Part shown: one piece after another, positions 8,741 through 46,679 of the stretch
Layout: each line of letters starts with the position of its first letter
Numbering within the stretch: position 1 is the first letter of the stretch
NCBI GenBank assembly: GCA_900318775.1
Contig: ONLY01000003.1
Location: forward strand, 124,001 to 188,000
Source of the DNA: an uncultured Prevotellaceae bacterium
Lineage (GTDB): Bacteria > Bacteroidota > Bacteroidia > Bacteroidales > Bacteroidaceae
Direction of reading: 5' to 3'
Length of the DNA: 64,000 nucleotides
Position numbers and translations under genes: made by a program
The notes under the pieces: model-generated
Seen by the model: the letters and a program-made list of their open reading frames with translations, nothing else
Database searches by the model: none
Told to the model about the DNA's origin: nothing

Positions 8741-8805
8741 CGGTGTGACTCAGACCGAGGGTACCGGTGTGAGTCAGACCGAGGGTGGCGGTGTGACTCA
8801 CACCG
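8741..8805. repeat. Triple palindrome element, copy 1
   Basis: Units at 8741-8757, 8765-8781 and 8789-8805, each fitting CGGTSTGASTCASACCG. The 7-nt spacers are AGGGTAC and AGGGTGG. The element is flanked by CCTCAAAAT on the left and TTTTTGAGG on the right, an outer inverted repeat. A CCTGCACCTC motif at 8726-8735 recurs beside copy 5. It lies between two minus-strand genes. Confidence 0.93.
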
Positions 8806-8905
8806 TTTTTGAGGCACAAAGTGCGGGGCAAAAGGAAGGGACTGTGTCACCTTTGAACACAGCCCCTTGTCTGACTATTTGAAGCCTGAATGAATCGGTA
8901 ACTCG

Positions 8906-11900
8906 TTAAGGAATGAGCACCTTCTTCGACAGACCGTTAGAGTACTTCACTATATTGAAACCACGCTGTGGAGCAGCCAGCTGTGCACCAGAGAGCGAGT
9001 AGAACGCCACTGGAATGCCTTCAACAACGGCGCTTCCATCAACTTCGACACCTTCGATATCAGTTGGCAAACCGTTAGGATAGTAGTAAAGGTTCCAAGC
9101 ACCTACCACTTCGTAGTCGTTGTCGTAGGTCTGGGTCTTGCTCAAGCCAATACGTACCTTACCGTCGGCAGGAACAATGAACTCGAGCTCGTTGAGGTAA
9201 TAGCCTGCGTTGAAGAAGGCCACGGTTGGAGTGGTGCCGTCAGGAGCAATAAGGCCGCTTGTGAGCGTGTAGGTGTTGCCTGCACCTTCTGGCACATCAG
9301 CTGCTGCTACGGCGCCTTCGGTCAGGTTCAGCACGGGCTTCGTGTACTTCTTCTCGGAGGTCTGCGCATAGAGGTCCTCGTTCCAGTAGCCTGCACGGTA
9401 GTAGGTGTGGACGGTCACTTTGTAGGTGCCTTCTTCCAAGCCAGAGAGGTCTTGGTAAAGCTCGAATGGAGCACGGTTGTAGGATACGGAGTACTGCTTG
9501 TAACCATTCATCGCGGTAGTAGTCCAGCCTTCGATATAACCAGTGTTCTTGTCACCCTTGGCAGGGTCGAAGGTTGGGTTGACGATGAGGCTTGTACATT
9601 CTTCTTCTGGGGTTGGATCGCCCAAGTAATAGAGATTCCATGCACCTACCACTTCGTAGTCGTTGTCGTAGGTCTGAGTCTTGCTCAAGCCAATGGTCAC
9701 ACTTCCATCTGCACCGACCGTGAACTCGAGCTCGTTGAGGTAGTAGCCTGCGTTGAAGAAGGCCACGGTTGGAGTGGTGCCGTCAGGTGCGATGAGACCG
9801 CTTGTAAGCGTGTAGGTATTGCCTGCACCTTCTGGCACATCAGCTGCTGCTACGGCGCCTTCGGTCAGGTTCAGCACGGGCTTCGTGTACTTCTTCTCGG
9901 AGGTCTGCGCATAGAGGGGTGGTGAGGTGGGTCTCTGCGCCTTCTGCGATGCGGCCTTCCTCCTCATTCCAGTAGCCCGCACGGTAGTAGGTGTGGACAG
10001 TCACTTTGTAGTTGCCCTTCTTCAAGCCCGTCAGTTTCTGGTTGAGTTCGAATGGAGCACGGTTGTAGGACACGGAGTACTGCTTGTAGCCGTTCATCGC
10101 TGTGGTGGTCCAGCCTTCGATGACACCGGTGTTCTTGTCACCCTTAGCAGGGTCGAAGGTTGGGTTGACGATAAGGCTTGTGCAATCTTGGTCGCCCAAG
10201 TAGTAGAGGTTCCATGCACCTACCACTTCGTAGTCGTTGTCAAAAGTATTGGCCTTGCTCAAGCCAATAGTTGCTTCACCATCTTCTCCCACGAAGAACT
10301 CGAGGGTGTTGAGGTAGTAGCCCGCGTTGAAGAAGGCCACGGTTGGAGTGGTGCCGTCAGGTGCGATGAGACCGCTTGTAAGCGTGTAGGTATTGCCTGC
10401 ATTTTCTGGCACATCAGCTGCTGCTACGGCGCCTTCGGTCAGGTTCAGCACGGGCTTCGTATACTTCTTCTCGGAGGTCTGCGCATAGAGGGTGGTGAGG
10501 TGGGTCTCTGCGCCTTCTGCAATGCGGCTTTCCTCCTCGTTCCAGTAGCCTGCACGGTAGTAGGTATGGACAGTCACGCGATATTTACCTTTTTTCAAGC
10601 CTGTCAACTTTTGGTTGAGCTCGAATGGGGCACGGTTGTAGGACACGGAGAACTGCTTGTAACCGTTCATCGCTGTGGTGGTCCAGCCTTCGATGACGCC
10701 GGTGTTCTTGTCACCCTTGGCGGGGTCGAAGGTTGGGTTGACGATGAGATTGGTACAATCGGTTGGATTGTACTCGGAAGCGGTGTCGTCGCCCATCCTG
10801 ACGGAAACCGCTGCGGCGTTCAAGTCGGAAATGGCTTGTTCGGCCTCTGCATTACCGTAGGTCTTGCTGTCGTATGCAGCTTGGGCAGCATCAAGAATGT
10901 TTTGTGCTGCAGCTGCCTTGCTGGAAGATGGGTTCTCCTCGATGGCTGCAGAAAGAGATGTCAAAGCCACTTTGAGTTTCCCGTAGAGGTCTACGCCTTC
11001 CTGCACATTGTCCATCGCGGCCTTCATGGCGATGAGTGCCTTATAAGCATCGTCGGCAGATGCAGCCTCAGCTATGGCGTCGGAAAGGGCATTGAGCTCA
11101 GGGGAACCTGCATACTGAGTCAGCAACTCTTGAGCTACAGGTGTGAGCGAAGCAATGACTGAAGCCAGCACTTCTGGGTTCTTGCCTCGGAAGGTGAGCT
11201 TTGCACCACCTGCCCACAGACGCATGCCGTCAGCAACACGCAATTCGTTGCTGAAGCCTATCTTCATCTTTCCCTCGGTCACAAGGCCATATACCGTAAC
11301 GGGGAACTTGTCTGCAGCAAAGGCGTCGGAGGCGTCTTCCTGGCTGTTGAGTGTCACATCGTCAAGAATCAGACCTGCTGGGATTGAGGTCTTGAAGTCG
11401 TTGATGTAGGCATGGGCCTTGATAGCGTTCACGTTGGCTTCGTCATAAGCACCGTCGTCGGGACGAACGGCTGCCTGAAGCGTAAACTCATAGAGGCCAT
11501 TCTGCAGGTTGTTGAGGTTCTGGTAGATGTCGCATACAGCATTCACCACCTCCACAAGACGATAATCTTCCCTGCCTGCAGGCCATGTGATGCTGCTGTT
11601 GGTCTTGCCTTGCCAGCCACCATCGGCGGTGAAGTCCGGATTCTGCAATAGGTCGGTGCAATCGTCTCCATCTTCCTTGGCATTGGCCTTGGCATCAAGG
11701 AAGAGCTTGTTGAGATAGGCGAGTTCGGCTGTTATCTGCTCATCGTTGAGCAAAGCATTCTCGAGGACATAAAGCGCACCACCATTCCCATTGTAGGCGC
11801 CTTCCTCTTTCTCGTCATCACCAATATAGTCACTAAGAAGCGCTACTTCTGTACTCTCGCTGGTGGTACTGCCAACAAAGTCAGTAGCCTCGTCAAAGAC

Positions 11901-13370
11901 TTTCTTGTATGCACCATAAGCAGCCACGCTGGATGCCATAGCCTTGGATGCGGCCATGAAGTCATCCACAGCCTGAGCACGAGCCTGGGATGTCTGGGCT
12001 GATTCGACGGTGTTCTTCGCAGCCGTGTAGGTTGCGCGAACTGATGCTTGAGCACAAGCCTCTTCATCATCGAACAGTGCCTCGTAGTCAGGCTCAAGAA
12101 GCATGATTTCTTCAAGCAACTTCTCATAAGACTCATCGCTATCTCCCAAATAATAGAGCTGCACATTGTCGAGCCCAATCCAATTGGGTCCTTTCGCGAA
12201 CAAATTAAGACCTATTTCCATTTCACCTCCACCACAATATGTATATACTTCTGTAGGAGACTCAATATCTATTAGTGTCGAGGTGACAGGCTTCTGTGCC
12301 GCACCAGCATAAAGATTCAGTCCAGCACCAGTGCTGGTGAAAGCTAATGCCTCGAAACGATAAACACCTGCCGGAAGCTTGACGGCTGTGGCAGAGACCT
12401 TGCCTACAGACATGGCACCATCATTCCAGTTCTCATAGTGATTGCCTGTCACAGAATAGTCCTTGGCATTGTGTCCATTGCCTGCTCCTTTATTCTGCGC
12501 ATTGGTAGTAGAGGTCCAGCCTGTCGTCTGTTCATCGGAGAAGTTTGTAGCGATGCTCTGATTCACTAATACTTCCACTGGATTCTCCAAAGAAGCGGCA
12601 TGATAGGCCGCAGCCATGATGGCATCGCGCAATTTCTGGGCCTGCGTGGTCATGGCCTCAACAGTGCTGGAAGTGTTGTTGTACAATGCTTCAGAAGCAG
12701 ACAACACATCGGCATCGACGCCAACCGTCGCTTTTGCTATGGTTATTTGCTCGCCAAGCTCCATTGCCGCATTATAAATGATAATGGAGGCAACGTAAGC
12801 CGTGTAGTCGTCTGGAGTCACAAAGTACCAAACGAGCTGGCAATCAGACTCCTGTTCGTCTCCATTCTCATAGTCACAGAAGTAAAGACGAGTGTCTTTC
12901 TTCGCCTTGTTCACACCCAAAAAGGCTGTAGGATAATCGGTAGCGGTGAAAGTGGCATTCTTGTTGGAAAGACCTATCTTATAGGTACCATCGCCTTGGG
13001 AAACAAAGGTGTACTGGTTATTGGGCTTGCCTTCCTTTGTGTTGTCTGTATAAATGGCGCTGAAGTTGTCAAGGAACATATACCCCCAACTGTTTTTCAT
13101 CCAGCCTTCCAACACATAACTGCTGATGTAATAAGAGTCAGATTCGGTGCCCTGCTCTATTTTGACTTCGTAGCCTGACGTCTGACTGACGCTTGCTCGT
13201 GTCCCGTAGTCATTGGCTCCCACATAGAAACCATCTGCATCTTTGTTATATAAGTAGCAACTCTGATTGGTGGACAAAGGAGCCACAGCAGGAGCTGCAG
13301 GCTTAGTCCATTGGGCAAAGGATGTCACACTCATCAACAAAGAAGCGACAAATAACGCGAATTTGTTCAT
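8906..13370 (-). pseudogene. Secreted repeat protein interrupted by a single-base frameshift
   Basis: One gene in two frames: 13370 to about 9915 (signal peptide MNKFALFVASLLMSVTSFAQ), then about 9920 to 8906 in another frame. The break is a GGGG run at 9916-9919 where the sister repeat at about 10490 has GGG. The intact product would be about 1,490 aa. Residues 1-870 hold Bacteroidetes beta-sandwich-like segments and FIVAR-like helical stretches. Then come three near-identical modules of about 190 aa beginning CT(N/S)LIVNPTFDPAKGD; the third lacks 15 residues after GYWNE. The end (AFYSLSGAQLAAPQRGFNIV) resembles the C-terminal tails of Prevotella secreted proteins, possibly a type IX sorting signal. 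Function unknown; probably glycan binding or adhesion. The frameshift could be real, phase-variable, or an assembly error. Confidence 0.82.
9063..10757 (-). repeat. Three tandem in-gene repeats of about 0.57-0.59 kb
   Basis: Module starts (Cys codon of CTNLIV or CTSLIV) are at 10757, 10184 and 9598, so the first two modules are 573 and 586 nt long. The 586-nt module is 195 codons plus one base, which is the frameshift. Long stretches are identical between modules at DNA level, so recombination or assembly collapse is possible. Confidence 0.85.
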
Positions 13371-13565
13371 TGTGATAAAGATATGAAATTAATAATTAGT
13401 TAATGTGATTTATATCTGTTCTTGAGTCCCAACCGTTCTATAAGGACTGGTATTGGCTGTTTCTATAAAGAGAGGGGGAAACGGGGACACTTGCGCTATC
13501 AGTTGCCCACACCTTGCACCCTATTAGCCTCCCTATTATAACATATGTAAATAGGTCTGTGTGTA
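13371..13565 (-). other. Long 5' leader of the repeat-protein gene
   Basis: About 190 nt between the predicted start of transcription (near 13558) and the ATG at 13370. It contains AATAGGG twice on the minus strand, but no hairpin or known riboswitch that I can recognise. Confidence 0.4.
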
Positions 13566-13597
13566 CAAATGTAGATATTTCAAAGGTTACTTCCAAA
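13566..13597 (-). promoter_or_regulatory. Promoter of the secreted repeat-protein gene
   Basis: Minus strand: -33 TTTG (13594-13597), exactly 20 nt, -7 TACATTTG (13566-13573). This is a full match to the Bacteroidetes housekeeping promoter. Confidence 0.8.
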
Positions 13598-13648
13598 GCT
13601 TTTTCGGGTTTTGTTCTAAAAAAGACACGTTTTTCATCTCATTTTCAC

Positions 13649-13656
13649 TATCTTTG
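13649..13656 (+). promoter_or_regulatory. -7 promoter box of mnmG
   Basis: TATCTTTG ends 22 nt before the ATG at 13679. No TTTG is found at the expected -33 distance, only a T-run near 13630. The box rules out the longer reading frame beginning at 13514. Confidence 0.6.
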
Positions 13657-13678
13657 CAAAAATTTACACTTCATTCAA

Positions 13679-15667
13679 ATGGTTTTCAACTATGATGTGG
13701 TTGTGGTGGGAGCTGGCCACGCTGGATGTGAAGCTGCCGCAGCGGCAGCTAATCTGGGCGCCAAAACGTGTCTCATCACGATGGACATGAATAAGATTGC
13801 ACAAATGTCGTGCAATCCCGCCATTGGTGGAATCGCCAAAGGACAGATCGTGAGGGAGATAGACGCATTAGGAGGATACACAGGTATCGTCACAGATCGC
13901 TGTAGCCTTCAATTCAGAATGCTGAACCTCTCGAAGGGACCTGCGGTGTGGAGCCCTCGTTCTCAATGCGACAGGGCGAAGTTCATCTGGACTTGGCGAG
14001 AAATCTTGGAGAACATACCGAATCTACAGATATGGCAAGACCAAGCAAGAGAGTTAGTTGTTGATAATCAAGAAGTTCAAGGTGTAAAGACTTACTACGG
14101 AGCGGAGTTTAAGGCTAAGTGCGTCATTATCACAGCAGGCACATTCCTGAACGGTCTGATGCACATTGGTCGTGTGAAGATTCCTGGAGGAAGATGTGCT
14201 GAATCGGCTGCGCTGGAACTGACGGAGTCTATCACGAAATACGGCATCCGCGCTGGGCGCATGAAGACAGGCACGCCTGTGCGCATCGACAAGCGCAGCG
14301 TGAACTTCTCGCTGATGGAGAAGCAGGATGGCGATCACAACTTCCACAAGTTCTCTTATCTGCCAACAGAACACACGGCAGTGAGCGAACGCAATAACTT
14401 GCCTTGCTGGATTTGCTACACAAACACGGAGGTGCACGATGTGCTGCGCTCAGGACTCCCTGACTCACCACTCTACAATGGGCAGATTCAAAGTATCGGA
14501 CCACGGTATTGCCCCAGCATCGAGACGAAGCTGCACACGTTCCCCGATAAGGACGAGCACATGCTTTTCCTCGAGCCTGAAGGAGAGACGACGAACGAGA
14601 TGTATCTTAATGGCTTCTCTTCCTCGCTCCCATTAGACATACAGCTGACTGCTCTACGCAAGATTCCTGCATTTAGAAATCTGGAGATTTACCGCCCTGG
14701 CTATGCCATCGAATACGACTTCTTTGACCCTACGCAGCTTACTCATGCGCTTGAATCGAAGGTAGTGAAAAACCTCTTCTTTGCAGGACAAGTGAATGGC
14801 ACAACAGGCTATGAGGAAGCGGCAGGGCAAGGCGTGATTGCCGGCATCAATGCAGCCATCAACAGCAGTAAAGCGGACTTCACAAAAAGCAAAGACTACC
14901 CATCCGAGATTTCCAAGAAACAGAAGGTTGACACCCACAGCAACGCCGGCACCACTCTCCTCAACAACGGAGAACCATTCACTCTCGGACGCAACGAAGC
15001 ATATATAGGAGTGCTTATTGACGACCTTGTAACGAAGGGAGTTGACGAGCCCTACCGTATGTTCACCTCTCGTGCCGAATACCGCATCTTGTTGCGCCAG
15101 GACGATGCCGACATGCGCCTTACGGAACGTAGCTACAAATTAGGATTAGCTTCCGAGGAACGGTACCAACTGATGACCTCAAAAAAGGAGAAGATAAAGG
15201 CCATCACAGATTTTGTGGCTAACTTCTCTATGAAGCCCTCGTTAATCAATCCCGCGCTGGAAACGTTGGGAACCACCCCACTCCGCCAAGGATGCAAACT
15301 GGAAGAGCTTTTAGGACGCCCCCAAATCAACATCAACAATATCACACCACACATCGACACTCTCCGAAAAGAACTGGAGCACGTCATTGGAGACGACCAT
15401 CGGCGCGAAGAAATCATTGAAGCGGCAGAAATACAAATCAAGTACAAGGGTTACATCTATCGCGAACAGCAAATGGCAGAGAAAATGATTCGCTTAGAGA
15501 ACATCAAGATTCAAGGCAAGTTTGACTATCCGAACATGACTCAAATCTCCATCGAAGCACGCCAAAAGCTACAAGCCATCCAGCCTGTCACGCTAGCTCA
15601 GGCCTCTCGCATCCCCGGTGTTTCACCCTCCGATATCAATATCATGCTTGTACTTATGGGTCGATAA
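13679..15667 (+). CDS. mnmG: tRNA uridine-5-carboxymethylaminomethyl modification enzyme MnmG (GidA)
   Basis: FAD-dependent partner of MnmE; together they install the cmnm5 group on the wobble uridine of several tRNAs. At 662 aa from the ATG at 13679 it is slightly longer than usual. The N-terminal dinucleotide-binding motif VVVVGAGHAGCEAAAAAA is at residues 7-24, followed by the family signature SCNPAIGGIAKGQ and later PGYAIEYDFFDPTQL and FFAGQVNGTTGYEEAAGQG. The C-terminal helical domain that contacts MnmE is complete. The start at 13679 is chosen because the -7 box lies just upstream. mnmG is often close to the replication origin, which fits the parS site 7 nt after its stop. Confidence 0.97.
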   Translation: MVFNYDVVVVGAGHAGCEAAAAAANLGAKTCLITMDMNKIAQMSCNPAIGGIAKGQIVREIDALGGYTGIVTDRCSLQFRMLNLSKGPAVWSPRSQCDRAKFIWTWREILENIPNLQIWQDQARELVVDNQEVQGVKTYYGAEFKAKCVIITAGTFLNGLMHIGRVKIPGGRCAESAALELTESITKYGIRAGRMKTGTPVRIDKRSVNFSLMEKQDGDHNFHKFSYLPTEHTAVSERNNLPCWICYTNTEVHDVLRSGLPDSPLYNGQIQSIGPRYCPSIETKLHTFPDKDEHMLFLEPEGETTNEMYLNGFSSSLPLDIQLTALRKIPAFRNLEIYRPGYAIEYDFFDPTQLTHALESKVVKNLFFAGQVNGTTGYEEAAGQGVIAGINAAINSSKADFTKSKDYPSEISKKQKVDTHSNAGTTLLNNGEPFTLGRNEAYIGVLIDDLVTKGVDEPYRMFTSRAEYRILLRQDDADMRLTERSYKLGLASEERYQLMTSKKEKIKAITDFVANFSMKPSLINPALETLGTTPLRQGCKLEELLGRPQININNITPHIDTLRKELEHVIGDDHRREEIIEAAEIQIKYKGYIYREQQMAEKMIRLENIKIQGKFDYPNMTQISIEARQKLQAIQPVTLAQASRIPGVSPSDINIMLVLMGR

Positions 15668-15674
15668 GGCACAT

Positions 15675-15690
15675 TGTTCCACGTGAAACA
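15675..15690. promoter_or_regulatory. parS: parS centromere site 1
   Basis: TGTTCCACGTGAAACA is a perfect match to the bacterial parS consensus TGTTNCACGTGAAACA, bound by ParB (Spo0J) for chromosome segregation. It lies in the mnmG-apt intergenic region. Confidence 0.95.
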
Positions 15691-15761
15691 ATACCACAAC
15701 ACTCCGAACAAAACCAAGCAGTTACAAAAAGACATCAAACAAACTCTATAACAAAACAACT

Positions 15762-16298
15762 ATGGAACCCAACACCAAGTATTTACTGGACCACCTGCGC
15801 TGCATCCCAGACTTCCCTAAGAAGGGCATTAACTTCCGTGACGTAACAACACTCTTCAAAGATGCCAAAGCGCTTGAAATAATGGAAGATATGCTTTACG
15901 AACTTTACAAAGACAAAGGAATCACCAAGGTAGTTGGCCTCGAGACTCGAGGTTATATCATGGGCTCTATCCTTGCACGACGCTTGAACGCAGGCTTTGT
16001 AATGGCTCGTAAACCCGGAAAGCTACCGGCTACCACTGTAAGAGAGAGCTTCACCAAGGAATATGGGACAGACGCCATCGAAATACACCTTGACTCTATC
16101 GAGCCAGACGACGTTGTTCTCCTTCACGATGACCTGCTCGCGACAGGCGGCACGATCAAAGCTGCATGGACACTCGTCAAGAAGCTCCATCCCAAGAAGT
16201 GTTATATGAACTTCTTGATAGAGATTCGCGACGAAGGCTTGCACGGCAGAGAAGCAATTGGAGAAGGCATCGAAATCACCACTCTTCTCTCTGTATAA
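15762..16298 (+). CDS. apt: Adenine phosphoribosyltransferase
   Basis: Purine salvage enzyme converting adenine and PRPP to AMP and pyrophosphate. At 178 aa it has the expected length. The N-terminal IPDFPKKGINFRDVTTLF segment is characteristic of bacterial APRT, and the PRPP-binding motif VVLLHDDLLATGGT is present near residues 121-134. The gene sits alone between two inverted parS sites, a placement that may reflect origin proximity rather than any functional link. Confidence 0.96.
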   Translation: MEPNTKYLLDHLRCIPDFPKKGINFRDVTTLFKDAKALEIMEDMLYELYKDKGITKVVGLETRGYIMGSILARRLNAGFVMARKPGKLPATTVRESFTKEYGTDAIEIHLDSIEPDDVVLLHDDLLATGGTIKAAWTLVKKLHPKKCYMNFLIEIRDEGLHGREAIGEGIEITTLLSV

Positions 16299-16408
16299 GA
16301 AGTTCCTCACACGCAAGCGTTCCACACGTCGAAAAGTTGATTTTACAGTCAACAAGGCGTTGAACACATTTGCGTTACATACTGAAAATTGAGCAGTTAG
16401 AGGAGAAT

Positions 16409-16424
16409 TGTTTCACGTGGAACA
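16409..16424. promoter_or_regulatory. parS: parS centromere site 2 (inverted copy)
   Basis: TGTTTCACGTGGAACA is the exact reverse complement of the site at 15675-15690. It lies 15 nt before the uvrC start, so bound ParB could affect uvrC expression. Confidence 0.95.
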
Positions 16425-16439
16425 AAAGTAAAGCTTTAA

Positions 16440-19710: not shown

Positions 19711-19894
19711 TTTTCCTCAAGCACAAATAAGTAGTTTCTTGAAACGCACAGATGCGTTGCCTACAAGCGCAATGAAGACTTGCCCACAAGCACAATGAAG
19801 ACTTGCCCACAAGCACAATAAAGGCTTGCTCACAAGCACAATGAAAGCTTGCCTACAAGCACAAAAGAGTGATGCCCTAAAGCACCAAGGAACT
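19711..19894. repeat. Eight-unit tandem repeat, period 23
   Basis: Eight consecutive 23-bp units start at 19711, 19734, 19757, 19780, 19803, 19826, 19849 and 19872. The five central units are close copies containing TTGCCYACAAGCACAATGAA; the outer ones match at 12-14 of 23 positions. Each core can form a small hairpin (CTTG, 4 nt, CAAG). It starts 35 bp after deoC. Confidence 0.88.
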
Positions 19895-19982: not shown

Positions 19983-20047
19983 CGGTGTGACTCAGACCGG
20001 GATAGGCGATGTGACTCAGACCACCAACCTCGGTGTGAGTCACACCG
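19983..20047. repeat. Triple palindrome element, copy 2
   Basis: Units at 19983-19999, 20007-20023 and 20031-20047 with 7-nt spacers GGATAGG and CCAACCT. The middle unit (CGATGTGACTCAGACCA) is the most diverged of all fifteen. It lies between convergent deoC and the polyprenyl synthase gene, just before a terminator. Confidence 0.9.
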
Positions 20048-25154: not shown

Positions 25155-25219
25155 CGGTGTGAGTCACACCGATGGTGGCGGTCTGAGTCACACCGCACAG
25201 TACGGTCTGAGTCACACCG
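25155..25219. repeat. Triple palindrome element, copy 3
   Basis: Units at 25155-25171, 25179-25195 and 25203-25219 with 7-nt spacers ATGGTGG and CACAGTA. The right flank ATTTTGAGGCA is shared with copies 1 and 5. It lies between two plus-strand genes. Confidence 0.93.
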
Positions 25220-34597: not shown

Positions 34598-34662
34598 CGG
34601 TGTGACTCAGACCGGCACCCTCGGTGTGACTCACACCGCATAGGTCGGTCTGAGTCACACTG
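34598..34662. repeat. Triple palindrome element, copy 4
   Basis: Units at 34598-34614, 34622-34638 and 34646-34662 with 7-nt spacers GCACCCT and CATAGGT. The first spacer is the reverse complement of the AGGGTGS spacers in copies 1 and 5, and GAGGTGCAGG at 34574-34583 is the reverse complement of the motif beside those copies. It lies between divergent ychF and purL. Confidence 0.92.
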
Positions 34663-38642: not shown

Positions 38643-38685
38643 AGAGTTAGTACAAGCTTGTACAACAAGAAGAACTGAAAACTGA

Positions 38686-39219
38686 ATGGACATCTACACG
38701 GAGATTTTCCTCACATTCGCCAAGATAGGCAGCTTCACATTAGGAGGCGGCTTTGCTATGGTGCAACTGATGGAAAAGGAGGTGGTGGATAAGAAGAAGT
38801 GGCTAAGTCATGAAGAATTCATGAACACGCTGGTCGTGGCGCAGAGCACTCCTGGTCTCTTCGCCATCGACATGGCTTCGCACATCGGCTTAAGGCTGAA
38901 AGGCGTGAAAGGTGGCATTGTGGGCGCATTAGGCACCGCATTGCCATCTATCATAGCCATCTTGCTCATCGCTATATTCTTCCAGGCATTCAAGGAAAAT
39001 GTCTATGTAGAGAAAATCTTCATGGGCATCCGCCCTTGTGTGGTAGCGCTGATTCTGGCTCCCTGCTTCGGGATGGCCCGAAAGGCGAAACTGAACAAGA
39101 CGAACTGGTGGATTCCCGTGGTGACTGCCTTACTGATTTCCGCCTTTGGCGTGTCGCCCATCTGGTGCATCCTCGCCGCTGGCATCGGCGGCTACCTGTG
39201 GGGGCAAGTGACAAAATAG
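38686..39219 (+). CDS. Chromate transporter family protein, half-size subunit 1
   Basis: 177-aa membrane protein of the CHR (ChrA) family, short-chain type with a single CHR domain. The N-terminal signature FAKIGSFTLGGGFAMVQLMEKEVVDKKKWL and AQSTPGLFAIDMASHIG are typical, followed by four or five hydrophobic segments. Half-size CHR genes occur in adjacent pairs with opposite membrane topology, and the partner follows after 30 nt. The transported anion may not be chromate in an anaerobe. Confidence 0.9.
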   Translation: MDIYTEIFLTFAKIGSFTLGGGFAMVQLMEKEVVDKKKWLSHEEFMNTLVVAQSTPGLFAIDMASHIGLRLKGVKGGIVGALGTALPSIIAILLIAIFFQAFKENVYVEKIFMGIRPCVVALILAPCFGMARKAKLNKTNWWIPVVTALLISAFGVSPIWCILAAGIGGYLWGQVTK

Positions 39220-39249
39220 AGGTTGAACGACTGACACGTATTTGACACC

Positions 39250-39822
39250 ATGATATTCTTAGAACTGTTTTACGTCTTCTCCAAGATAGGCATCTTCAAC
39301 TTCGGAGGTGGCTACGCAATGCTGTCACTCATTCAAGACGAAGTGGTGAACAAGCACCATTGGATGACCGTCAACGAATTCACAGACATCGTGGCCATCA
39401 GTCAATCGACACCGGGTCCCATCGGCATCAACTGCGCAACCTACACCGGCTATACAGCAGTCATTCATGCAGGATTCCCCACGTGGGCAGCAGTCCTGGG
39501 CGCCATCTTGGCCTCCTTGAGCGTGATATGGCTGCCATTCATCCTGATGGTGAGCATCAGCAGGTTCCTTTTGAGACACAGCCAGTCGAAGGCTGTGACA
39601 GACATCTTCGGCACGCTACGCCTTGTGATTGTGGGACTACTAGCTGCAGCCGCCATCATGCTGATGTCGAAAGAGAATTTTGGCAATCCATCAGAATCGG
39701 TGTTCACCTTCATCGTAAGCCTGATTATCTTCTTCATGTCGTTCGTGGGAACAAGAGTCTATAAGATTCATCCCATCATCATCATTCTGCTCTGTGGACT
39801 GGCGGGGTTAGTGATTTATTAA
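39250..39822 (+). CDS. Chromate transporter family protein, half-size subunit 2
   Basis: 190 aa, partner of the preceding gene. FSKIGIFNFGGGYAMLSLIQDEVVNKHHWM and ISQSTPGPIGINCATYTGY are the CHR signature. It has about five membrane segments. The two proteins probably form a heterodimer equivalent to a full-length ChrA. Confidence 0.9.
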   Translation: MIFLELFYVFSKIGIFNFGGGYAMLSLIQDEVVNKHHWMTVNEFTDIVAISQSTPGPIGINCATYTGYTAVIHAGFPTWAAVLGAILASLSVIWLPFILMVSISRFLLRHSQSKAVTDIFGTLRLVIVGLLAAAAIMLMSKENFGNPSESVFTFIVSLIIFFMSFVGTRVYKIHPIIIILLCGLAGLVIY

Positions 39823-39883
39823 AGAACTGCGCCTTACCGAGCCAGCAAGACTTATCAGGCGTCTACAGAAAAAGAAATCAACA

Positions 39884-41200
39884 ATGGCAGAAGAAGCACG
39901 GACATACACGTTTGAGAACGGATTACGCCTCATACAGATTCCCTCACCAACCAACGTAGCGTACTGCGGCATCAGCATAGATGCAGGCACTCGCGACGAG
40001 GAAGAAGGGGAGGAGGGAATGGCGCACTTCTGCGAACACATGATGTTCAAGGGTACCCAACAACGGAAAGCGTGGCACATCATCAACAGGATGGAAGCTG
40101 TAGGTGGCGACCTGAACGCTTACACCAACAAAGAAGAGACTGTCGTATACGCCGCTTTCATGAAGGAGCACTTCGGACGCGCCGCAGAGCTGATCTTCGA
40201 CATCGTGTTCCACAGCACCTATCCTCAGCATGAGATAGACAAGGAATGTGAAGTCATCGTGGATGAAATTGAAAGCTACAACGACACCCCTGCTGACCTT
40301 ATCTTTGACCGCTTTGAAGACCTCATCTATGAGGGGCATGACTTAGGGCACGACATACTGGGAACAGCCGAGAATGTGAGACGATTCAAGACAGAGGATG
40401 CCTTAAAGTTCGTGAAGCGTTTATACCGACCTGAGAAGATGGTGTTCTTCGTGATGGGCGATATCTCCTTTGAGCAAGTGAAGAAAACGGTGAGCAAGAT
40501 TCTCAAAGGGATGAAAATACAGCACTCCCACGAGGCTACCAACATGCAAGAGCATTCTGCATCTTCGACGAACCTTGCGACTCAAAAAAGCTCTGCAATG
40601 CCCGAAGAGACCGCATCAGAAGAGAGTACAGCACCTTCACCCAAGCTCCATCCTGGCACTTTCACAGAAGAGCGCGGAACCCATCAGGCGCACGTCATGA
40701 TTGGACGAGCAGCATACGGATCGAAAGATGACAAGCGAATCGCTCTATACTTCCTCAACAACATTTTGGGCGGGCCAGGCATGAACTCGCGACTGAACAT
40801 TGCCTTGAGGGAGCGCAAGGGACTGGTTTACACCGTGGAGAGTACGCTGACCAACTATACAGACACCTCCACATGGGCTCTTTATTTCGGATGTGATGAA
40901 GAAGATGTGGAGAAATGCATCAAGGCTGTGCGGCGCGAACTGGACAAACTGATGAACGAGCCCCTCTCTGAGCGGCAGTTCCAAGCTGCACTAAAGCAGA
41001 TAAAAGGACAAATTGGTGTAGCTTGCGACAACTTCGAGAACTATACGCTGGATATGGCCAAGGCTTACCTCCACTATCACAAGTTCGAGGGAATGAAAGA
41101 TACTATTGAGCATCTGCAACGCATCACACCGCAACTTCTCCAAGAGGTGGCCAAGGATATGTTCGATGCACAAGGGCTAACCACGCTTATCTTCACATAA
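39884..41200 (+). CDS. M16 family zinc peptidase (insulinase/PqqL-like), cytoplasmic
   Basis: 438 aa with the inverted zinc motif HFCEH at 48-52 (HxxEH) and the downstream Glu in the EKECEVIVDEIE-like segment (DKECEVIVDEIESY). The C-terminal inactive half has the R-Y type substrate-binding segment (RERKGLVYTVES). No signal peptide. Between the halves (about 220-255) lies a low-complexity Ser/Thr/Glu-rich insert (SASSTNLATQKSS, ETASEESTAPSP), unusual for this compact family. Role probably peptide turnover. Confidence 0.9.
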   Translation: MAEEARTYTFENGLRLIQIPSPTNVAYCGISIDAGTRDEEEGEEGMAHFCEHMMFKGTQQRKAWHIINRMEAVGGDLNAYTNKEETVVYAAFMKEHFGRAAELIFDIVFHSTYPQHEIDKECEVIVDEIESYNDTPADLIFDRFEDLIYEGHDLGHDILGTAENVRRFKTEDALKFVKRLYRPEKMVFFVMGDISFEQVKKTVSKILKGMKIQHSHEATNMQEHSASSTNLATQKSSAMPEETASEESTAPSPKLHPGTFTEERGTHQAHVMIGRAAYGSKDDKRIALYFLNNILGGPGMNSRLNIALRERKGLVYTVESTLTNYTDTSTWALYFGCDEEDVEKCIKAVRRELDKLMNEPLSERQFQAALKQIKGQIGVACDNFENYTLDMAKAYLHYHKFEGMKDTIEHLQRITPQLLQEVAKDMFDAQGLTTLIFT

Positions 41201-41217
41201 GATGCGTATAAGACAAG

Positions 41218-41277
41218 CGATAGCCTATAGCCCTATAAGTCTGCGCAGCAGGATGAACTAATGCCAAAAGGCTATCG
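41218..41277. repeat. 9-bp inverted repeat after M16 gene
   Basis: CGATAGCCT (41218-41226) and AGGCTATCG (41269-41277), 42 nt apart. Possible weak terminator stem; it overlaps the start of the 23-bp array. Confidence 0.4.
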
Positions 41278-41363
41278 GGCTAAAATCATCGCTGCTAGCG
41301 AGCTATCCGCTCGAGTGTTATCGAGCAAGCCATACATGAGTTATCGAGCAAATCATAACTAAA
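41272..41363. repeat. Four-unit tandem repeat, period 23
   Basis: Units start at 41272, 41295, 41318 and 41341, each beginning with a version of YTATCGRGCWA: CTATCGGGCTA, CTAGCGAGCTA, TTATCGAGCAA, TTATCGAGCAA. The later part of each unit is more diverged. Located in the 290-bp M16-PfkB intergenic region, which otherwise shows nothing recognisable. Confidence 0.7.
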
Positions 41364-41493
41364 TAATTGAATAGCATCACAAGAAGGGAATAGCCATGCT
41401 TAAACAGCCTGCATGGCTTGAGAGATTAGAAGGACGCGCCACTCAAGACGGGCACGTCACACAAAGTAGAAAAGACAGGAAAGAAAACAATTT

Positions 41494-42420
41494 ATGAGAA
41501 AAGTAATAGGAATCGGAGAGACGATTTTTGACATCATCTTTAAGAACGAGCAGCCAACAGCAGCAGTGCCTGGTGGTTCCACATTCAACGGCCTTATCGC
41601 ATTGGGACGCATGGGCCAGAATGTGACCATGATTACAGAGACAGGCAATGACCGCGTGGGCAAGGCCATCAAGGCGTTCATGGAGGAGAACGGAGTTAAC
41701 AGCAAGCATGTATGCATGTATGAAGACGGCCGCACAGCCATCTCACTGGCTTATTTGAATGAACGGAACGACGCAGAATACACGTTCTACAAGGACTATC
41801 CCAATGCACGCCTTGATGTGGAATGGCCCGAGGTGAACAAAGACGACATCGTGATGATGGGGTCCTATTTCGTGCTGAATCCTGTGCTTAGAGCTAAAGT
41901 GACAGAGTTTCTTGATTATGCGACGAGACGCGGAGCATTGGTCTATTACGACATCAATTTCCGCTCCTCACATGCGTCAGAAGCCATCAAGCTCTATTCG
42001 ACTATTCTGGAGAACTTCGACTATGCCAGCATCGTGCGCGGTTCGACGGAGGACTTCCAGAATATGTTCCAGATTTCCGACCCCGAGAAGGTGTATCAGA
42101 AAGAAGTGGCATTCCACTGCAAGCAGATGCTCTGCACAGATGCCGAGGGCGATATCAGCCTATTCTCGCCCAGTGTGACAAAAACGTATAAGGTAAATAA
42201 AATAGAGACGGTCTCCACCATCGGAGCAGGCGACAACTTCAATGCAGGCATTATCTATGGCCTGCTGCAAGAAGGCATCGGATGTGACAACCTGGCAACC
42301 ATCAGCGAAGAGAAATGGAACCGCATTATCGCACACGGCGCTGCCTTTGCAGCAGATGTGTGCCAAAGTTTCAACAACTCAATTAGCAAAGAATTTGCAA
42401 ATAATTATGGAAGAAAATAA
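41494..42420 (+). CDS. PfkB-family carbohydrate kinase (fructokinase-like)
   Basis: 308-aa ribokinase-fold sugar kinase. The N-terminal PGGSTFNGLIALGRMG segment matches PfkB signature 1 (glycine-rich substrate region) and TIGAGDNFNAGIIYG is the signature 2 with the catalytic Asp (GAGD). In signature 2 the usual Ala or Ser after GAGD is Asn. The lid strand region AYLNERNDAEYTFYKD fits a hexose kinase. Substrate unproven; fructose is the usual annotation. The next gene overlaps its 3' end by 14 nt. Confidence 0.88.
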   Translation: MRKVIGIGETIFDIIFKNEQPTAAVPGGSTFNGLIALGRMGQNVTMITETGNDRVGKAIKAFMEENGVNSKHVCMYEDGRTAISLAYLNERNDAEYTFYKDYPNARLDVEWPEVNKDDIVMMGSYFVLNPVLRAKVTEFLDYATRRGALVYYDINFRSSHASEAIKLYSTILENFDYASIVRGSTEDFQNMFQISDPEKVYQKEVAFHCKQMLCTDAEGDISLFSPSVTKTYKVNKIETVSTIGAGDNFNAGIIYGLLQEGIGCDNLATISEEKWNRIIAHGAAFAADVCQSFNNSISKEFANNYGRK

Positions 42421-44539
42421 CAACGTAAAAGAGACTATGGACAACGAAATGTTTATGATGAATGAAGAACAAGCTGCGGCTATGGACAACGCGCCACAAG
42501 CAGCAAGCGAAGAACCCCAAACAGACAACACAGAACAGGCGACTGTAGATGCCTTCACCCAGACAGGCACAACCTTCGAAGAGCTGGGTGTTTCGGGCGA
42601 GATTCTGCAAGCCATCAAAGAGATGGGCTATGTTGCACCAATGCCCGTGCAGGAGCAGGTGATTCCTTACCTGCTGGGGCACAACAACGATGTGGTGGCC
42701 CTTGCACAGACGGGAACAGGAAAGACCGCTGCGTATGGCCTTCCCGTGTTGCAGAAGGTGGACACAAGTCGTGCCGAGGTGCAGGCAGTCATCATGGCTC
42801 CCACACGCGAACTGTGCTTGCAGATTGCCGACGATTTGAAGGACTATTCAAAATATATTGATGGTTTGCACGTACTCCCCGTGTATGGCGGAGCCAGCAT
42901 TGAGCCACAGATTCGTTCCTTGAAGAAGGGCGTGCAAGTGATTGTCGCCACACCAGGACGTCTCGTGGACTTGATGGAGCGCGGCGTGGCCAAGCTCGGC
43001 ACAGTGGAGAATGTGGTGCTGGACGAGGCCGACGAGATGCTCAACATGGGCTTCTCTGAGAGCATTGATACCATCCTCGCTGGTGTGCCTGCAGAGCGCA
43101 ACACGCTGCTCTTTTCAGCCACCATGAGCAAGGAAATTGAGCGCATCGCAAAGAACTACTTGCACGATGCCAAGGAAATCGTGGTGGGCAGCCGCAACGA
43201 GGGTGCTGAACATGTGAACCACATCTACTACATGGTGAGCGCACGCGACAAGTACAACGCACTGAAGCGCGTGGCCGACTACTACCCAGAGATTTATGCC
43301 ATCATCTTCTGCCGCACCCGCATGGAGACACAAGAGATTGCTGACAAGCTCATCAAGGACGGTTACAACGCAGAATCCTTGCATGGCGAACTTTCACAGG
43401 CACAGCGCGACCTGACCATGCAGAAGTTCCGTCAGCACCGTGTGCAACTGCTCGTGGCCACCGATGTGGCTGCACGAGGCTTGGATGTGGATGAGCTCAC
43501 CCACGTCATCAACTACGGTCTGCCCGACGACATCGAAAGCTATACACACCGTTCTGGACGTACAGGACGCGCAGGACGCTCTGGCACCTCCATCTCCATC
43601 ATCCACGTGAAGGAAAAGGGAAAGGTGCGCGCCATTGAGAAGCAGATTCAAAAGAAGTTTGTGCCAGGTGTCCTGCCTACAGGACAGGAGATTTGTGCCA
43701 AGCAACTCTATAAGGTGATTGACGACATCGAGAAAGTGGAAATCAACGAAGAGGAGATTGCTCCATTCCTTCCTGAGGTGTACCGCAAGTTCGACATGAT
43801 GGAGAAGGAGGATCTCATCAAACGTATGGTGTCGATGGAGTTCAACACGTTCCTTAACTACTACAAGAAGGCTCCAGAGATTATCCAGCCATCGGAGAAA
43901 GGTGACCGCCGTGGCGAAGAAGGCTTTGGTGAAAAGCGCGGACGTGGTGAGCGCCGCAGCCGTGGCGACCGCAACCGTATGGCAGAGGCCGGCTACACAC
44001 GCCTATTCATCAACCTGGGCAAAAAGGATGGCATCTCTCCCAAAGTCTTCATGGGCTTCATCAACCGTGTGGCAGGAGACACACACATTGACTTGGGCCG
44101 CATTGACCTCATGCAGAACTTCTCGTTCTTCGAAGTTCCAGAACCACAGACAAAGGCCGTGCTCAATGTGCTCAACGGCACCGATTTCGATGGCCGCAAG
44201 GTGAATGTAGAGGTGACTGACCAGAAAGAAGGCCAGCACGGTGGCGGTGAAAAGAGACGCGGCGGCAAGGAAGGCGGCAATTCTCGCCCCACGAGAGGCG
44301 AACGCGGCGGCAGACGTGATAACCGCTACAGCCGTGAAGAAAGTCGCTCCTACGGCGAGAGAAAGGGCAAAAAAGGCAGCGGGAAGGTTCGTGGCGCTGC
44401 TGCAGCCAAGCCTTCACGCGAGGAACGCGGCTACACCTCCGCACGTGGTCCCAAGGGAGCAGCCGAATGGGCCAAGTTCTTCGAGGGCCAGGTAGAGTCA
44501 CAACCCTTCTATGAAAACTTCAAGAAGAAGAAAAAATAA
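42407..44539 (+). CDS. DEAD-box RNA helicase with DbpA-like domain and RG-rich tail
   Basis: 710-aa CsdA/DeaD-type ATP-dependent RNA helicase, probably for ribosome assembly or mRNA decay at low temperature. After an acidic Gln/Glu-rich N-terminus come the Q motif (about 75-90), Walker A AQTGTGKT at 100-107, PTREL, DEAD at 206-209, SAT, ARGLDVDELTHV and HRSGRTGRAGRSG. A DbpA-type RNA-binding domain follows (YTRLFINLGKKDGISPKVFM) and a long Arg/Gly/Lys-rich tail. I place the start at 42407 (MEENNNVKE), overlapping the kinase gene by 14 nt; the frame extends further up but as a shadow. Confidence 0.93.
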   Translation: MEENNNVKETMDNEMFMMNEEQAAAMDNAPQAASEEPQTDNTEQATVDAFTQTGTTFEELGVSGEILQAIKEMGYVAPMPVQEQVIPYLLGHNNDVVALAQTGTGKTAAYGLPVLQKVDTSRAEVQAVIMAPTRELCLQIADDLKDYSKYIDGLHVLPVYGGASIEPQIRSLKKGVQVIVATPGRLVDLMERGVAKLGTVENVVLDEADEMLNMGFSESIDTILAGVPAERNTLLFSATMSKEIERIAKNYLHDAKEIVVGSRNEGAEHVNHIYYMVSARDKYNALKRVADYYPEIYAIIFCRTRMETQEIADKLIKDGYNAESLHGELSQAQRDLTMQKFRQHRVQLLVATDVAARGLDVDELTHVINYGLPDDIESYTHRSGRTGRAGRSGTSISIIHVKEKGKVRAIEKQIQKKFVPGVLPTGQEICAKQLYKVIDDIEKVEINEEEIAPFLPEVYRKFDMMEKEDLIKRMVSMEFNTFLNYYKKAPEIIQPSEKGDRRGEEGFGEKRGRGERRSRGDRNRMAEAGYTRLFINLGKKDGISPKVFMGFINRVAGDTHIDLGRIDLMQNFSFFEVPEPQTKAVLNVLNGTDFDGRKVNVEVTDQKEGQHGGGEKRRGGKEGGNSRPTRGERGGRRDNRYSREESRSYGERKGKKGSGKVRGAAAAKPSREERGYTSARGPKGAAEWAKFFEGQVESQPFYENFKKKKK

Positions 44540-44608
44540 AAAATAACCGATCATCCATCATGAATCAGCCGACAGGCATGACACATTGCTGAACCTGACG
44601 GCTCCTTC

Positions 44609-46498
44609 ATGACGAATGACGAACAAGGAATGAATCACATGGGCGCATTCAATTGGAAAGGTATCTACGAGAGCTTCAACAGCGGTTTCCTGACAGACAA
44701 GGAACATCCTGTTATCGGCATCACAGGCAACTACGACAAGGAGACCTGCATGCTGGCCGAGGGCTATTACCAGTCAGTGCTACGGGCTGAAGGCATCCCC
44801 TTCATCATCCCGCCGTTCTGGCCCGATGACCGTCTGGGCGAACTGCTCGACCAGCTGGACGGCATCATCTTCAGCGGAGGTGGCGACATCAACCCGTTGC
44901 TGCTGGGCGAAGAGCCCATCAAGGAGCTCCACAGCATCACGCCTCAGCGCGACATGCAAGAGCTGCTTCTGGCTCGCATGGCCTACGACCGGCAAATCCC
45001 TATGCTGGGCATCTGCAAGGGCATCCAGGTCATCAACGCCGCTCTCGGAGGCACCAACTACCAAGACATCTACACGCAGATGGAAGGAGTGCGCATCAAG
45101 CACAGCCAAGACCTGGACCGCCGCCATTCTTCGCATACCGTTAAGCTGACGAAAGGGTCCACACTGGAACGCATCTTCACCCTCGACACCTATGGTGGGG
45201 AGCAGTGCAACACTGAGCACCGCGTCGTGGAAAAACTCCCCGTCAACTCCTTCCACCATCAGGCCTGCAAGGACGTAGCTCCCTGCCTGAGAGTGGCTGC
45301 GATGAGCGAGGACGGTGTCATCGAAGCCGTTGAATCCAACGAGTTCAAGTCCATTCTGGGTGTGCAGTGGCATCCAGAGACCTATATCCTAGGTGACGAC
45401 TACTACATGATGAGCATCTTCGAGTGGCTTGTGGGCGAGAGCGCAGAGTTCAAGCAAGCCAAGGCGCTGCACAGCAAAATCCTCACGCTCGACAGCCATT
45501 GCGACACCCCCATGTTCTTCCCCAAAGGAGTTAACTTCGACTCGCGCGACCCCAAGGTGCTGGTTGACCTCCACAAGATGGCTGAAGGGCACCTCGATGC
45601 CACCATCATGGTAGCCTATCTGGAGCAGCAGGAACGCACCGAGGCAGCCCTTGAGAACGCCACCGCCAAGGCCAACCAGATTCTCACCCAGATTGAGGAG
45701 ATGGTAGCCAAAAACTGCACGGCAGTCGATATCGCCTACACACCCGACGAGCTCTGGAAACTGAAGCAAGAGGGAAAGCGTGGCATCATGCTCGGCATCG
45801 AGAACGGCTATGCCATCGGCAAGGACCTCAGCAACGTGAAAGCCTTCAGCAAGCGTGGAATAGTGTACATGACCCTGTGCCACAACGGCGACAACGACAT
45901 CTGCGACTCAGCCCGTGGCAATCGCGAGCATGGAGGCGTAAGCGATTTCGGAGCCCAAGTCATTGCTGAGATGAACCGCTATGGCATCATGGTAGACCTC
46001 AGCCATGCCAGCGAGGAGAGTTTCTATGACGCCATCGGGATGAGCAAGACCCCCATCGTGTGCAGCCATTCGTCGGCTCGTGCCCTGTGCGACCATCCGC
46101 GCAACCTGACCGACGCTCAGTTGCGTGCCCTCGCCAATGCGGGAGGTGTGGCACAAGTAACGCTCTATCATGGATTCCTCGTCAAGGACTCCGTCGATTA
46201 TAACCCCTCCAACCAACTGCGTGCCTTTGGCTCCAACACAGAGGGCGTGACCGAGGCCACCATCCTCGACGCCATCGAGCACCTCAACCACATGGTCAAC
46301 GTGATGGGTATTGAGCACGTAGGCATCGGCACCGACTTCGATGGCGACGGCGGCATCCGTGGATGTGCGTCGGCCAGCGAACTCATCAACTTCACGCGCC
46401 GACTGCTCCGCGAACGCTACACCGAAGAACAGATACAGATGATTTGGGGCGGCAACTTCCTCCGCGTAATGAAGCAAGTACAAGCCTACACCGGATAA
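44609..46498 (+). CDS. Fusion of C26 gamma-glutamyl hydrolase-like and M19 membrane dipeptidase-like domains
   Basis: 629 aa containing two enzymes usually encoded separately. Residues about 30-275: class I glutamine-amidotransferase-like C26 domain (PuuD/gamma-Glu-GABA hydrolase type) with GGGDINP, nucleophile Cys136 in GICKGIQ, and VQWHPE. Residues about 290-625: M19 renal-dipeptidase-type zinc peptidase with TLDSHCDTP (His297, Asp299), GIENGY, MVDLSHAS, PIVCSHSSARAL and GTDFDGDGG. No signal peptide is seen, so a cytoplasmic enzyme is inferred, possibly hydrolysing gamma-glutamyl peptides in two steps. Start may be 44609, 44630 (MNHMG) or the next ATG. Followed by a terminator. Confidence 0.88.
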   Translation: MTNDEQGMNHMGAFNWKGIYESFNSGFLTDKEHPVIGITGNYDKETCMLAEGYYQSVLRAEGIPFIIPPFWPDDRLGELLDQLDGIIFSGGGDINPLLLGEEPIKELHSITPQRDMQELLLARMAYDRQIPMLGICKGIQVINAALGGTNYQDIYTQMEGVRIKHSQDLDRRHSSHTVKLTKGSTLERIFTLDTYGGEQCNTEHRVVEKLPVNSFHHQACKDVAPCLRVAAMSEDGVIEAVESNEFKSILGVQWHPETYILGDDYYMMSIFEWLVGESAEFKQAKALHSKILTLDSHCDTPMFFPKGVNFDSRDPKVLVDLHKMAEGHLDATIMVAYLEQQERTEAALENATAKANQILTQIEEMVAKNCTAVDIAYTPDELWKLKQEGKRGIMLGIENGYAIGKDLSNVKAFSKRGIVYMTLCHNGDNDICDSARGNREHGGVSDFGAQVIAEMNRYGIMVDLSHASEESFYDAIGMSKTPIVCSHSSARALCDHPRNLTDAQLRALANAGGVAQVTLYHGFLVKDSVDYNPSNQLRAFGSNTEGVTEATILDAIEHLNHMVNVMGIEHVGIGTDFDGDGGIRGCASASELINFTRRLLRERYTEEQIQMIWGGNFLRVMKQVQAYTG

Positions 46499-46539
46499 GC
46501 AAGAGAGAATAGGGGAGTGTCCCCCTTCAAGCAACAGAG

Positions 46540-46580
46540 AAAGAACGGGAGCGAGTCCATCGGATTCGTTCCCGTTCTTT
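46540..46580 (+). terminator. Intrinsic terminator after the C26-M19 gene
   Basis: 19-nt arms (AAAGAACGGGA.. / ..TCCCGTTCTTT) with two mismatches and a 3-nt loop, followed by TTGG and T-rich sequence. Confidence 0.75.
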
Positions 46581-46614
46581 TGGTTTATTCTGCATGCACC
46601 CTGCACCTCTTTGG

Positions 46615-46679
46615 CGGTGTGAGTCACACCGAGGGTGGCGGTCTGACTCAGACCGGGGGTGCCGGTGTGACTCACACCG
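46615..46679. repeat. Triple palindrome element, copy 5
   Basis: Units at 46615-46631, 46639-46655 and 46663-46679 with 7-nt spacers AGGGTGG and GGGGTGC. Left CCTGCACCTC (46600-46609) and right TTTTTGAGGC flanks match copy 1. All three units here are perfect palindromes apart from the central base. Located between convergent genes. Confidence 0.93.

What the first reader, a model, noticed from the sequence alone, without database searches (positions are those of the whole stretch)
8741..46679. Five-copy intergenic element made of exactly three 17-bp near-palindromes with 24-bp period
Copies at 8741-8805, 19983-20047, 25155-25219, 34598-34662 and 46615-46679 are all 65 bp: three 17-mers and two 7-nt spacers, never two or four. 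13 of 15 units fit CGGTSTGASTCASACCG exactly. Variation is confined almost wholly to C/G choices at positions 5, 9 and 13, which are symmetric about the centre; 7 units are full palindromes apart from the centre and 8 are hybrids (GTGTG arm opposite CAGAC arm, or the converse). Copies share flanks (CCTGCACCTC, TTTTGAGG) but sit between convergent, divergent and co-directional genes alike. Constant number and spacing with coded-looking C/G variation suggests a multi-site protein target or a mobile non-coding element under constraint, not random expansion. I know of no described family with this form.
Basis: seen in the sequence. Interest (0 to 1): 0.88.

Follow-up and report, generated by a model that had tools for sequence, protein, structure and literature searches.

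The report
Triple DNA target of HU-like protein
The repeated triple palindrome looks like the dedicated landing site of a DNA-packaging (HU-like) protein that keeps one copy of the site in front of its own gene and dozens more between genes, and sister proteins in these gut bacteria seem to have their own, differently spelled triple sites.

Summary
Genome-wide, 35 of 38 copies have exactly three units, at 24-bp period. The arms are strongly conserved at fixed loci: 30 orthologous copies in a close species differ at 3 of 1080 arm cells but 37 of 540 spacer cells. Facing arms and inner flanks pair less often than chance within this genome, which argues against an RNA stem here.

One copy sits in the leader of an HU-HIG (PF18291) gene, HU1; at least one unit is there in 20 of 21 orthologues. 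HU1 and the elements occur in exactly the same 21 of 45 congeneric genomes, and on a PolA tree this label changes at least three times. A paralogue, HU2, has a differently spelled triple in its leader, and the window holds a dispersed element of that spelling at 54744-54806. Triples were found in leaders of 22 of 27 HU2-like genes and 0 of 16 more distant paralogues. Palindrome spelling tracks the first 23 residues (partial Mantel 0.61).

Best reading: cognate double-stranded DNA targets of diversified HU-like proteins, probably autoregulated, with a chromosome-organising role. Binding and role are inferred.

The parts
8741..8805 (.). HU1-type triple element 1 (units 8741-8757, 8765-8781, 8789-8805); outer inverted flanks CCTGCACCTCAAAAT / TTTTTGAGGCAC
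   Evidence: between two genes on the minus strand
19983..20047 (.). HU1-type triple element 2 (units 19983-19999, 20007-20023 with 2 mismatches, 20031-20047)
   Evidence: between convergent DeoC-family and polyprenyl synthetase genes
25155..25219 (.). HU1-type triple element 3 (units 25155-25171, 25179-25195, 25203-25219)
   Evidence: between co-directional Exo_endo_phos_3 and acetyltransferase genes; my crude gene caller put it in a weak 52-aa frame
34598..34662 (.). HU1-type triple element 4 (units 34598-34614, 34622-34638, 34646-34662 with 1 mismatch)
   Evidence: between divergent YchF-type GTPase and FGAR-AT (PurL-like) genes
46615..46679 (.). HU1-type triple element 5 (units 46615-46631, 46639-46655, 46663-46679)
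   Evidence: after a peptidase M19 gene; the gene on the other side is unnamed and its strand differs between my two gene callers
54744..54806 (.). HU2-type triple element: three 17-bp near-palindromes at 23-bp period (54744-54760, 54767-54783, 54790-54806), flanks CCTCTAAAC / GTTTGGGAG, in the gap between a plus-strand and a minus-strand frame
   Evidence: spelling matches the leader of the own HU2 gene

Best explanation
The element is a double-stranded DNA target array for a dedicated HU-superfamily protein, HU1 (HU-HIG family, 133 aa, encoded outside the window at G000 C18:19047-19445). Each 17-bp palindrome would be bound by one protein dimer, so an element holds three dimers 24 bp apart. 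The basic N-terminal segment (about residues 5-23, outside the HU-HIG match at 27-120) would read the arms. The copy between promoter and start codon of the HU1 gene would give autoregulation. The other 37 own-genome copies, essentially all intergenic and over-represented between convergent genes, would be dispersed nucleation or anchoring sites for nucleoid organisation rather than operators of their neighbours. Sister HU-HIG proteins have their own triple sites with other spelling. Shown here: build, constraint, leader position, co-occurrence, and agreement of protein segment with site spelling. Inferred: binding, stoichiometry, autoregulation and the chromosomal role.
For: Arms far better conserved than spacers at orthologous copies: 3 of 1080 against 37 of 540 cells, Fisher 3e-15. 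At least one unit in the HU1 leader in 20 of 21 orthologues, three units in 18, and a TAnnTTTG box upstream of them in all 19 leaders in which one search found units. HU1 orthologue and elements in the same 21 of 45 congeneric genomes, neither in the other 24; the label needs 6 changes on a PolA tree of 30 genomes, 3 of them forced by well-supported branches. Two site types, GGTGTGA and GGTGAGA, in HU1 leaders, separated by alignment column 17 alone (14 and 8 proteins); none of the 11 genomes with only a type-1 leader other than G007 and G019 has type-2 doublets. Triples in leaders of 22 of 27 HU2-like paralogues, spelled differently, spelling grouping with the N-terminal segment (partial Mantel 0.61, p 0.0005). 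An HU2-spelled element away from its gene, in the window. HU1 matches HU-HIG at 46.2 bits against a cut-off of 26.2.
Against: No binding data. Type matching is imperfect: G002 has an HU1 of the type-2 clade (L at column 17), a lost leader site and 6 type-1 doublets but no type-2; G007 and G019 have type-1 leaders but 4 and 2 type-2 doublets; G003 has a type-2 leader and 2 type-1 doublets; G051's first leader is mixed. Five of 27 HU2-like leaders and all 16 distant ones lack a triple, and 6 of the 22 positives rest on reading, with scores inside the shuffled range. The rest of the protein also correlates with the site (partial 0.15, p 0.0075; in HU2 alone 0.31, p 0.0005). Only 2 of the 24 genomes without either are at least 90% complete with at most 5% contamination (G015, G024). 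The AlphaFold model was unusable (mean pLDDT 42.8). PDB sequence search gave only weak HU hits (best HU hit E 0.35).
Confidence: 0.7

Rival explanations
1. Mobile non-coding element (MITE- or REP/BIME-like), spread by a transposase or RAYT, the triple build inherited from a master copy.
For: Patchy copy number among congeners (0 to 75 doublets); inverted outer flanks that are species-specific and alike among copies of one species; intergenic places; unit gain by tandem copying in own L162 against three units in G010 C41.
Against: No Y1_Tnp in the four element-rich genomes covered; shared positions between species; arms conserved at fixed loci; exact co-occurrence with an HU gene that carries the element in its leader. 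Target duplications and empty sites were not tested.
Confidence: 0.12
2. Structured RNA (three-way junction, attenuator or terminator) acting in transcripts.
For: Inverted flanks and three palindromes could fold as a three-way junction; leader position in HU1 genes; in other species some cross-unit compensation (G060 leader: unit 1 GGA with unit 3 TCC; likewise the mixed G051 leader) and long perfect outer stems (G016, G041, G003 leaders); one unit scored as terminator-like in L145.
Against: Within the own genome facing S bases are mismatched in 61 of 74 spacers, with 11 complementary where about 37 would be expected from the margins (my hand calculation from the counts); flank positions 3-10 pair in 150 of 296 cells against 168.9 (sd 7.8) after shuffling. 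Other leaders compensate within a unit instead (G017 L251, G002 L262). No Rfam match in the window at gathering score. No folding calculation was run.
Confidence: 0.08
3. Ordinary operators: the HU protein, or another factor, regulates the genes next to each element.
For: Leader copies sit between promoter box and start codon; 14 of 38 own places are co-directional and 9 divergent.
Against: 14 of 38 places lie between convergent genes, more than expected from other gaps (p about 0.002 with a crude gene caller); the ten neighbours examined in the window share no evident function.
Confidence: 0.2
4. A specific form of the main reading: regional marker sites, like matS or SlmA sites, that tell one chromosomal domain from another.
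For: All 38 own places lie on 12 of 41 contigs (1.59 of 2.62 Mb); the other 29 contigs have none (chance 5e-9). The best DnaA-domain hit is on an element-free contig. Of 12 marker pieces from element-free contigs 7 mapped in G010 at 92% or more, 6 of them to contigs without a triple.
Against: In the more distant G057 8 of the 12 markers mapped and 6 of these (one weakly) lie on contigs that carry elements, two within 10 kb of one. In G010 the seventh marker lies 6 kb from an element. Contigs cannot be ordered; GC skew showed no clear switch.
Confidence: 0.25

Closest known systems
MatP/matS and SlmA-site systems of E. coli (passages of PMC3116907)
   Same: A dedicated protein and tens of short palindromic sites over the chromosome (matS 23 sites, GTGAC..GTCAC; SlmA about 50 sites, GTGAGTACTCAC), here about 38; similar GTGA/TCAC letters; regional distribution in the own genome.
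   Different: Sites in fixed triples at 23-24-bp period; candidate protein of the HU superfamily, not MatP or SlmA (neither was searched for here); several paralogous protein-site pairs; region not kept in G057.
HU/IHF superfamily, HU-HIG family PF18291
   Same: HU1 matches the family (46.2 bits, cut-off 26.2).
   Different: Apparent private 17-bp palindromes in triples and an N-terminal segment outside the matched stretch that tracks their spelling. HU is generally taken as weakly specific (recalled).
Porphyromonas gingivalis HU PG0121 and its 77-bp inverted repeat (abstract and outline of PMC3969353)
   Same: A Bacteroidales HU protein linked with an inverted-repeat element at a transcription unit.
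   Different: One locus and one 77-bp inverted repeat; a section heading of that paper speaks of non-discriminatory binding; no dispersed triple array.
REP/BIME repeats with RAYT (PMC3733652 and PMC6006769 seen in listing only)
   Same: Intergenic palindromic repeats in many copies, limited to some taxa.
   Different: No Y1_Tnp in the four element-rich genomes searched; nearly constant unit number and spacing.

Membership tests
HU-HIG family (the protein HU1) | Match to PF18291 above the curated cut-off | tested here: met
   46.2 bits against 26.2, residues 27-120
HU-HIG family (the protein HU1) | HU fold with DNA-binding arms | tested here: inconclusive
   AlphaFold from four homologues gave mean pLDDT 42.8; PDB sequence search best HU hit E 0.35
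HU1 target element (this proposal) | Direct binding of HU1 to the triple | not testable with these tools
   needs gel shift, DAP-seq or ChIP-seq
HU1 target element (this proposal) | Gene and element occur together | tested here: met
   same 21 of 45 genomes
REP/BIME | RAYT (Y1 transposase-like) gene in the genome | tested here: not met
   0 matches to PF01797 in G000, G010, G012, G013; G049, G057, G059 not searched
MITE or IS relic | Target duplications and clean empty sites | not tested
   only one loss seen, the G002 leader
matS/MatP | 13-bp GTGACRNYGTCAC sites bound by MatP | tested here: not met
   unit is GGTSTGASTCASACC, 112 own units tallied; MatP itself was not searched for
matS/MatP | Restriction to one chromosomal domain | tested here: inconclusive
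   clustered in the own genome, agrees in G010, not in G057
Known structured RNA (Rfam) | Match at gathering score | tested here: not met
   0 matches in the window

The most novel reading that the evidence does not exclude
HU-superfamily proteins in this genus have become a set of sequence-specific DNA address readers. A short N-terminal turn (RPDG-M-HEAW in HU1, GPDHQQHEAW in HU2) spells the palindrome, each protein keeps a triple of its site in its own leader, and private networks of triple sites organise the chromosome. The amino-acid to DNA code could be read from the paralogues.
Probability: 0.45. Interest if true: 0.93.

Novelty: new variant of a known kind. Interest (0 to 1): 0.82.

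Why it matters
HU-like proteins are usually taken as weakly specific DNA benders (recalled). Here a subfamily seems to have private 17-bp palindromes, nearly always in threes, whose spelling tracks a 23-residue N-terminal segment. That gives a concrete, cheaply testable hypothesis for what expanded HU-HIG proteins of Bacteroidales do, and a natural set of protein-site pairs from which a recognition code might be read. It also points to a chromosome-addressing system in a group for which I recall none of the MatP or SlmA kind.

Tried and rejected
RNA three-way junction: attractive from the inverted flanks. Set aside because within the own genome facing bases and flank positions 3-10 are less complementary than chance and covariation across all copies is weak. 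Some leaders of other species do show cross-unit compensation, so it is not excluded there.

RAYT/REP: set aside for lack of Y1_Tnp in the four element-rich genomes searched.

Ter- or ori-domain marker: strong clustering in the own genome, agreeing in G010, not kept in G057. Left open.

Transfer of a small HU1-plus-site cassette into G059: its second HU1 differs from the G041 protein by one residue (alignment), but the surrounding 17 kb is syntenic with G041 and G016 in tracts of 74-95% identity, so a small cassette is not what moved.

Phage or plasmid origin: no relative of HU1 in viral contigs or plasmids; HU2 has two distant relatives in plasmids (26-30% identity) and none in phages. HU1 was not searched in phages.

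A possible third triple at L152:215-277 shows no flank symmetry and was not pursued. AlphaFold of HU1 was too poor to use, so no fold search was run.
Full report
OBSERVATION. The five copies are as described. In the own assembly (2.62 Mb, 41 contigs) 113 units match with up to 2 mismatches and 37 triple matches occur, two of them overlapping in one four-unit array. Reading the DNA around every place gave 38 places: 35 with three units, one with four (L162), one with two (L144), one with one (L152). These hold 112 units; the 113th is the isolated match at window 33497. Among the 112, the twelve non-S positions deviate in 2 of 1344 cells.

DISTRIBUTION. None of 16 genomes of other families of the order has the doublet, and no viral contig has it. 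With a looser pattern 21 of 45 congeneric genomes have it. Some species use a 23-bp period and other spacers and outer flanks around the same palindrome.

ANATOMY. The outer flanks are an inverted repeat to about 20 bp, roughly CTTCC..ACCTCAAAATC before the core and its reverse complement after it. The C/G choice at positions 5 and 13 follows a rule: across a spacer the facing bases are GG, CC or CG, never GC (0 of 202 spacers in 101 deduplicated triples; 0 of 74 in the own genome). In the own genome 61 of 74 facing pairs are mismatched, and flank positions 3-10 pair in 150 of 296 cells against 168.9 (sd 7.8) after shuffling; positions 11-20 show nothing (164 of 370 against 156.5, sd 9.3). I read this as selection against hairpin or cruciform formation by sites whose binding tolerates C or G there (inference). 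In species such as UBA4359 and G013 perfectly paired facing arms are common, so the bias is not universal, and some leaders of other species show cross-unit compensation.

CONSTRAINT AND CENTRE FLIPS. Thirty own elements were paired with G010 (RUG13218) copies: 25 have flanking-DNA matches and five were paired by order and core likeness, which could lower the difference counts. Differences: arms 3 of 1080, arm S 2 of 180, centre 11 of 90, spacer 37 of 540. Ten of 11 centre changes are C to G or back, against 3 such changes in 540 spacer cells (Fisher 4e-7). In a unit with matching arms the flip only reverses the same double-stranded site; template switching at the palindrome could cause it (inference).

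CONTEXT. With a crude codon-usage gene caller 14 places are convergent, 14 co-directional, 9 divergent, and one lies in a weak 52-aa frame; a simpler caller gave 10, 13 and 5 with ten inside mostly short frames, one of 1359 nt. Convergent gaps are over-represented (p about 0.002; the background was taken from the same fetched stretches). All 38 lie on 12 contigs holding 61% of the assembly (chance 5e-9). Markers from element-free contigs agree in G010 (6 of 7 mapped) but not in G057 (2 of 8 on contigs without elements).

THE HU LINK. At own C18 the element lies between a TAnnTTTG box (Bacteroidetes promoter motif, recalled) and the start codon of a 133-aa HU-HIG gene. Its orthologue (69-100% identity) is in 21 of 45 congeners, the same 21 as the elements; in the other 24 the best hit is no better than E 5.8e-12. 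In leaders with 23-bp period, or with no array, the 24-bp doublets must lie elsewhere, so in low-copy genomes such as G048, G060 and G023 the agreement is not made by the leader copy itself. On a PolA tree of 30 genomes the label needs 6 changes, at least 3 forced. In the leaders 18 of 21 have three units, G056 two, G046 one, G002 none. Two site types exist, GGTGTGA and GGTGAGA; column 17 alone separates 14 type-1 from 8 type-2 leader proteins (the G051 leader is mixed and was counted as type 2). G059 has a type-1 HU1 with a type-1 leader and a second HU1 with a type-2 leader, and its only type-2 array is that leader. The exceptions (G002, G003, G007, G019, G051) are given under evidence against.

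GENERALITY. A scan of 1.81 Mb of fetched DNA (overlapping loci included) for three 17-bp near-palindromes at 22-25-bp period gave 253 hits, 215 at 24 and 37 at 23, none in one shuffled copy of each locus. Seven distinct hits fell outside the HU1 family: the leader of the own HU2 gene, the leader of a G057 paralogue (two registers), a place in G041, window 54744-54806, an unexplained one in L152, and a noise-like one at period 25. The own HU2 spelling occurs twice in about 0.4 Mb of own DNA held, once in its leader and once in the window. I then scanned 43 HU-HIG leaders: 27 of the 28 paralogues listed with 90-116 bits (own HU2 type), and 16 with 63-77 bits. Of the 27, 22 have a triple: 16 with score 18 or more (AT-rich L355 left out) and 6 with scores 14-17 judged by reading the units (L304, L345, L351, L353, L356, L357); shuffles reached at most 17. 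None of the 16 has one. Spellings differ between paralogues and group with the N-terminal segment. Over 38 protein-site pairs (near-identical proteins left out; HU1 rows given their type consensus as the site) the partial correlation with site spelling is 0.61 for residues 1-23 given the rest and 0.15 for the rest given those residues; in the 21 HU2-like pairs 0.53 and 0.31.

MECHANISM. Most likely each palindrome binds a protein dimer through the basic N-terminal segment, three side by side per element, with autoregulation through the leader copy and an architectural role at dispersed copies. Genomic linkage is shown; binding, autoregulation and architecture are not.

LITERATURE. A search for HU-HIG, PF18291, TIGR01201 or HU-CCDC81 listed one paper, on Bacteroides vulgatus and gluten, seen as a listing only; HU-HIG with Bacteroidetes gave none. 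Searches on palindromes and HU in Bacteroidetes showed no such element in their listings. Seen: abstract and outline of PMC3969353, passages of PMC3116907 and of PMC8040213. A 2017 survey that named HU-HIG is recalled, not seen. The library holds open-licence papers only, so absence there is weak evidence.

Noticed in passing
window 54744-54806: Second-family triple element with the spelling of the own HU2 leader; it became part of the finding.
   Followed up: yes
window about 19780-19880: Tandem repeat of roughly 22-24 bp (ACAAGCACAATGAAGACTTGCC-like) shortly before the element at 19983 (seen).
   Followed up: no
L152:215-277: A possible third triple of near-palindromes (TAACACACGGCGTGTTA-like, 23-bp period), without symmetric flanks, upstream of a long frame.
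   Followed up: partly
L165, L017, L041, L046, L049, L050 outer flanks: In several species the element is flanked further out by TTGGTCAAAATGTAC on one side and a related CGTACAAAATGACCAA on the other, about 23 bp beyond the inner flank.
   Followed up: no
L162:4001 against G010 C41:2411: Own copy has four units where the likely G010 counterpart has three, as if one 24-bp unit had been tandemly copied.
   Followed up: partly
L148 and L149 against G010 C3:73775 and C3:109352: Two elements 36 kb apart carry core sequences that are exactly exchanged between the two species, two differences each; chance or exchange between copies.
   Followed up: no
L247 (G002 HU1 leader): The leader triple is lost by a deletion that leaves the right flank; this HU1 also has an otherwise unseen R to C change in its HU part.
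   Followed up: partly
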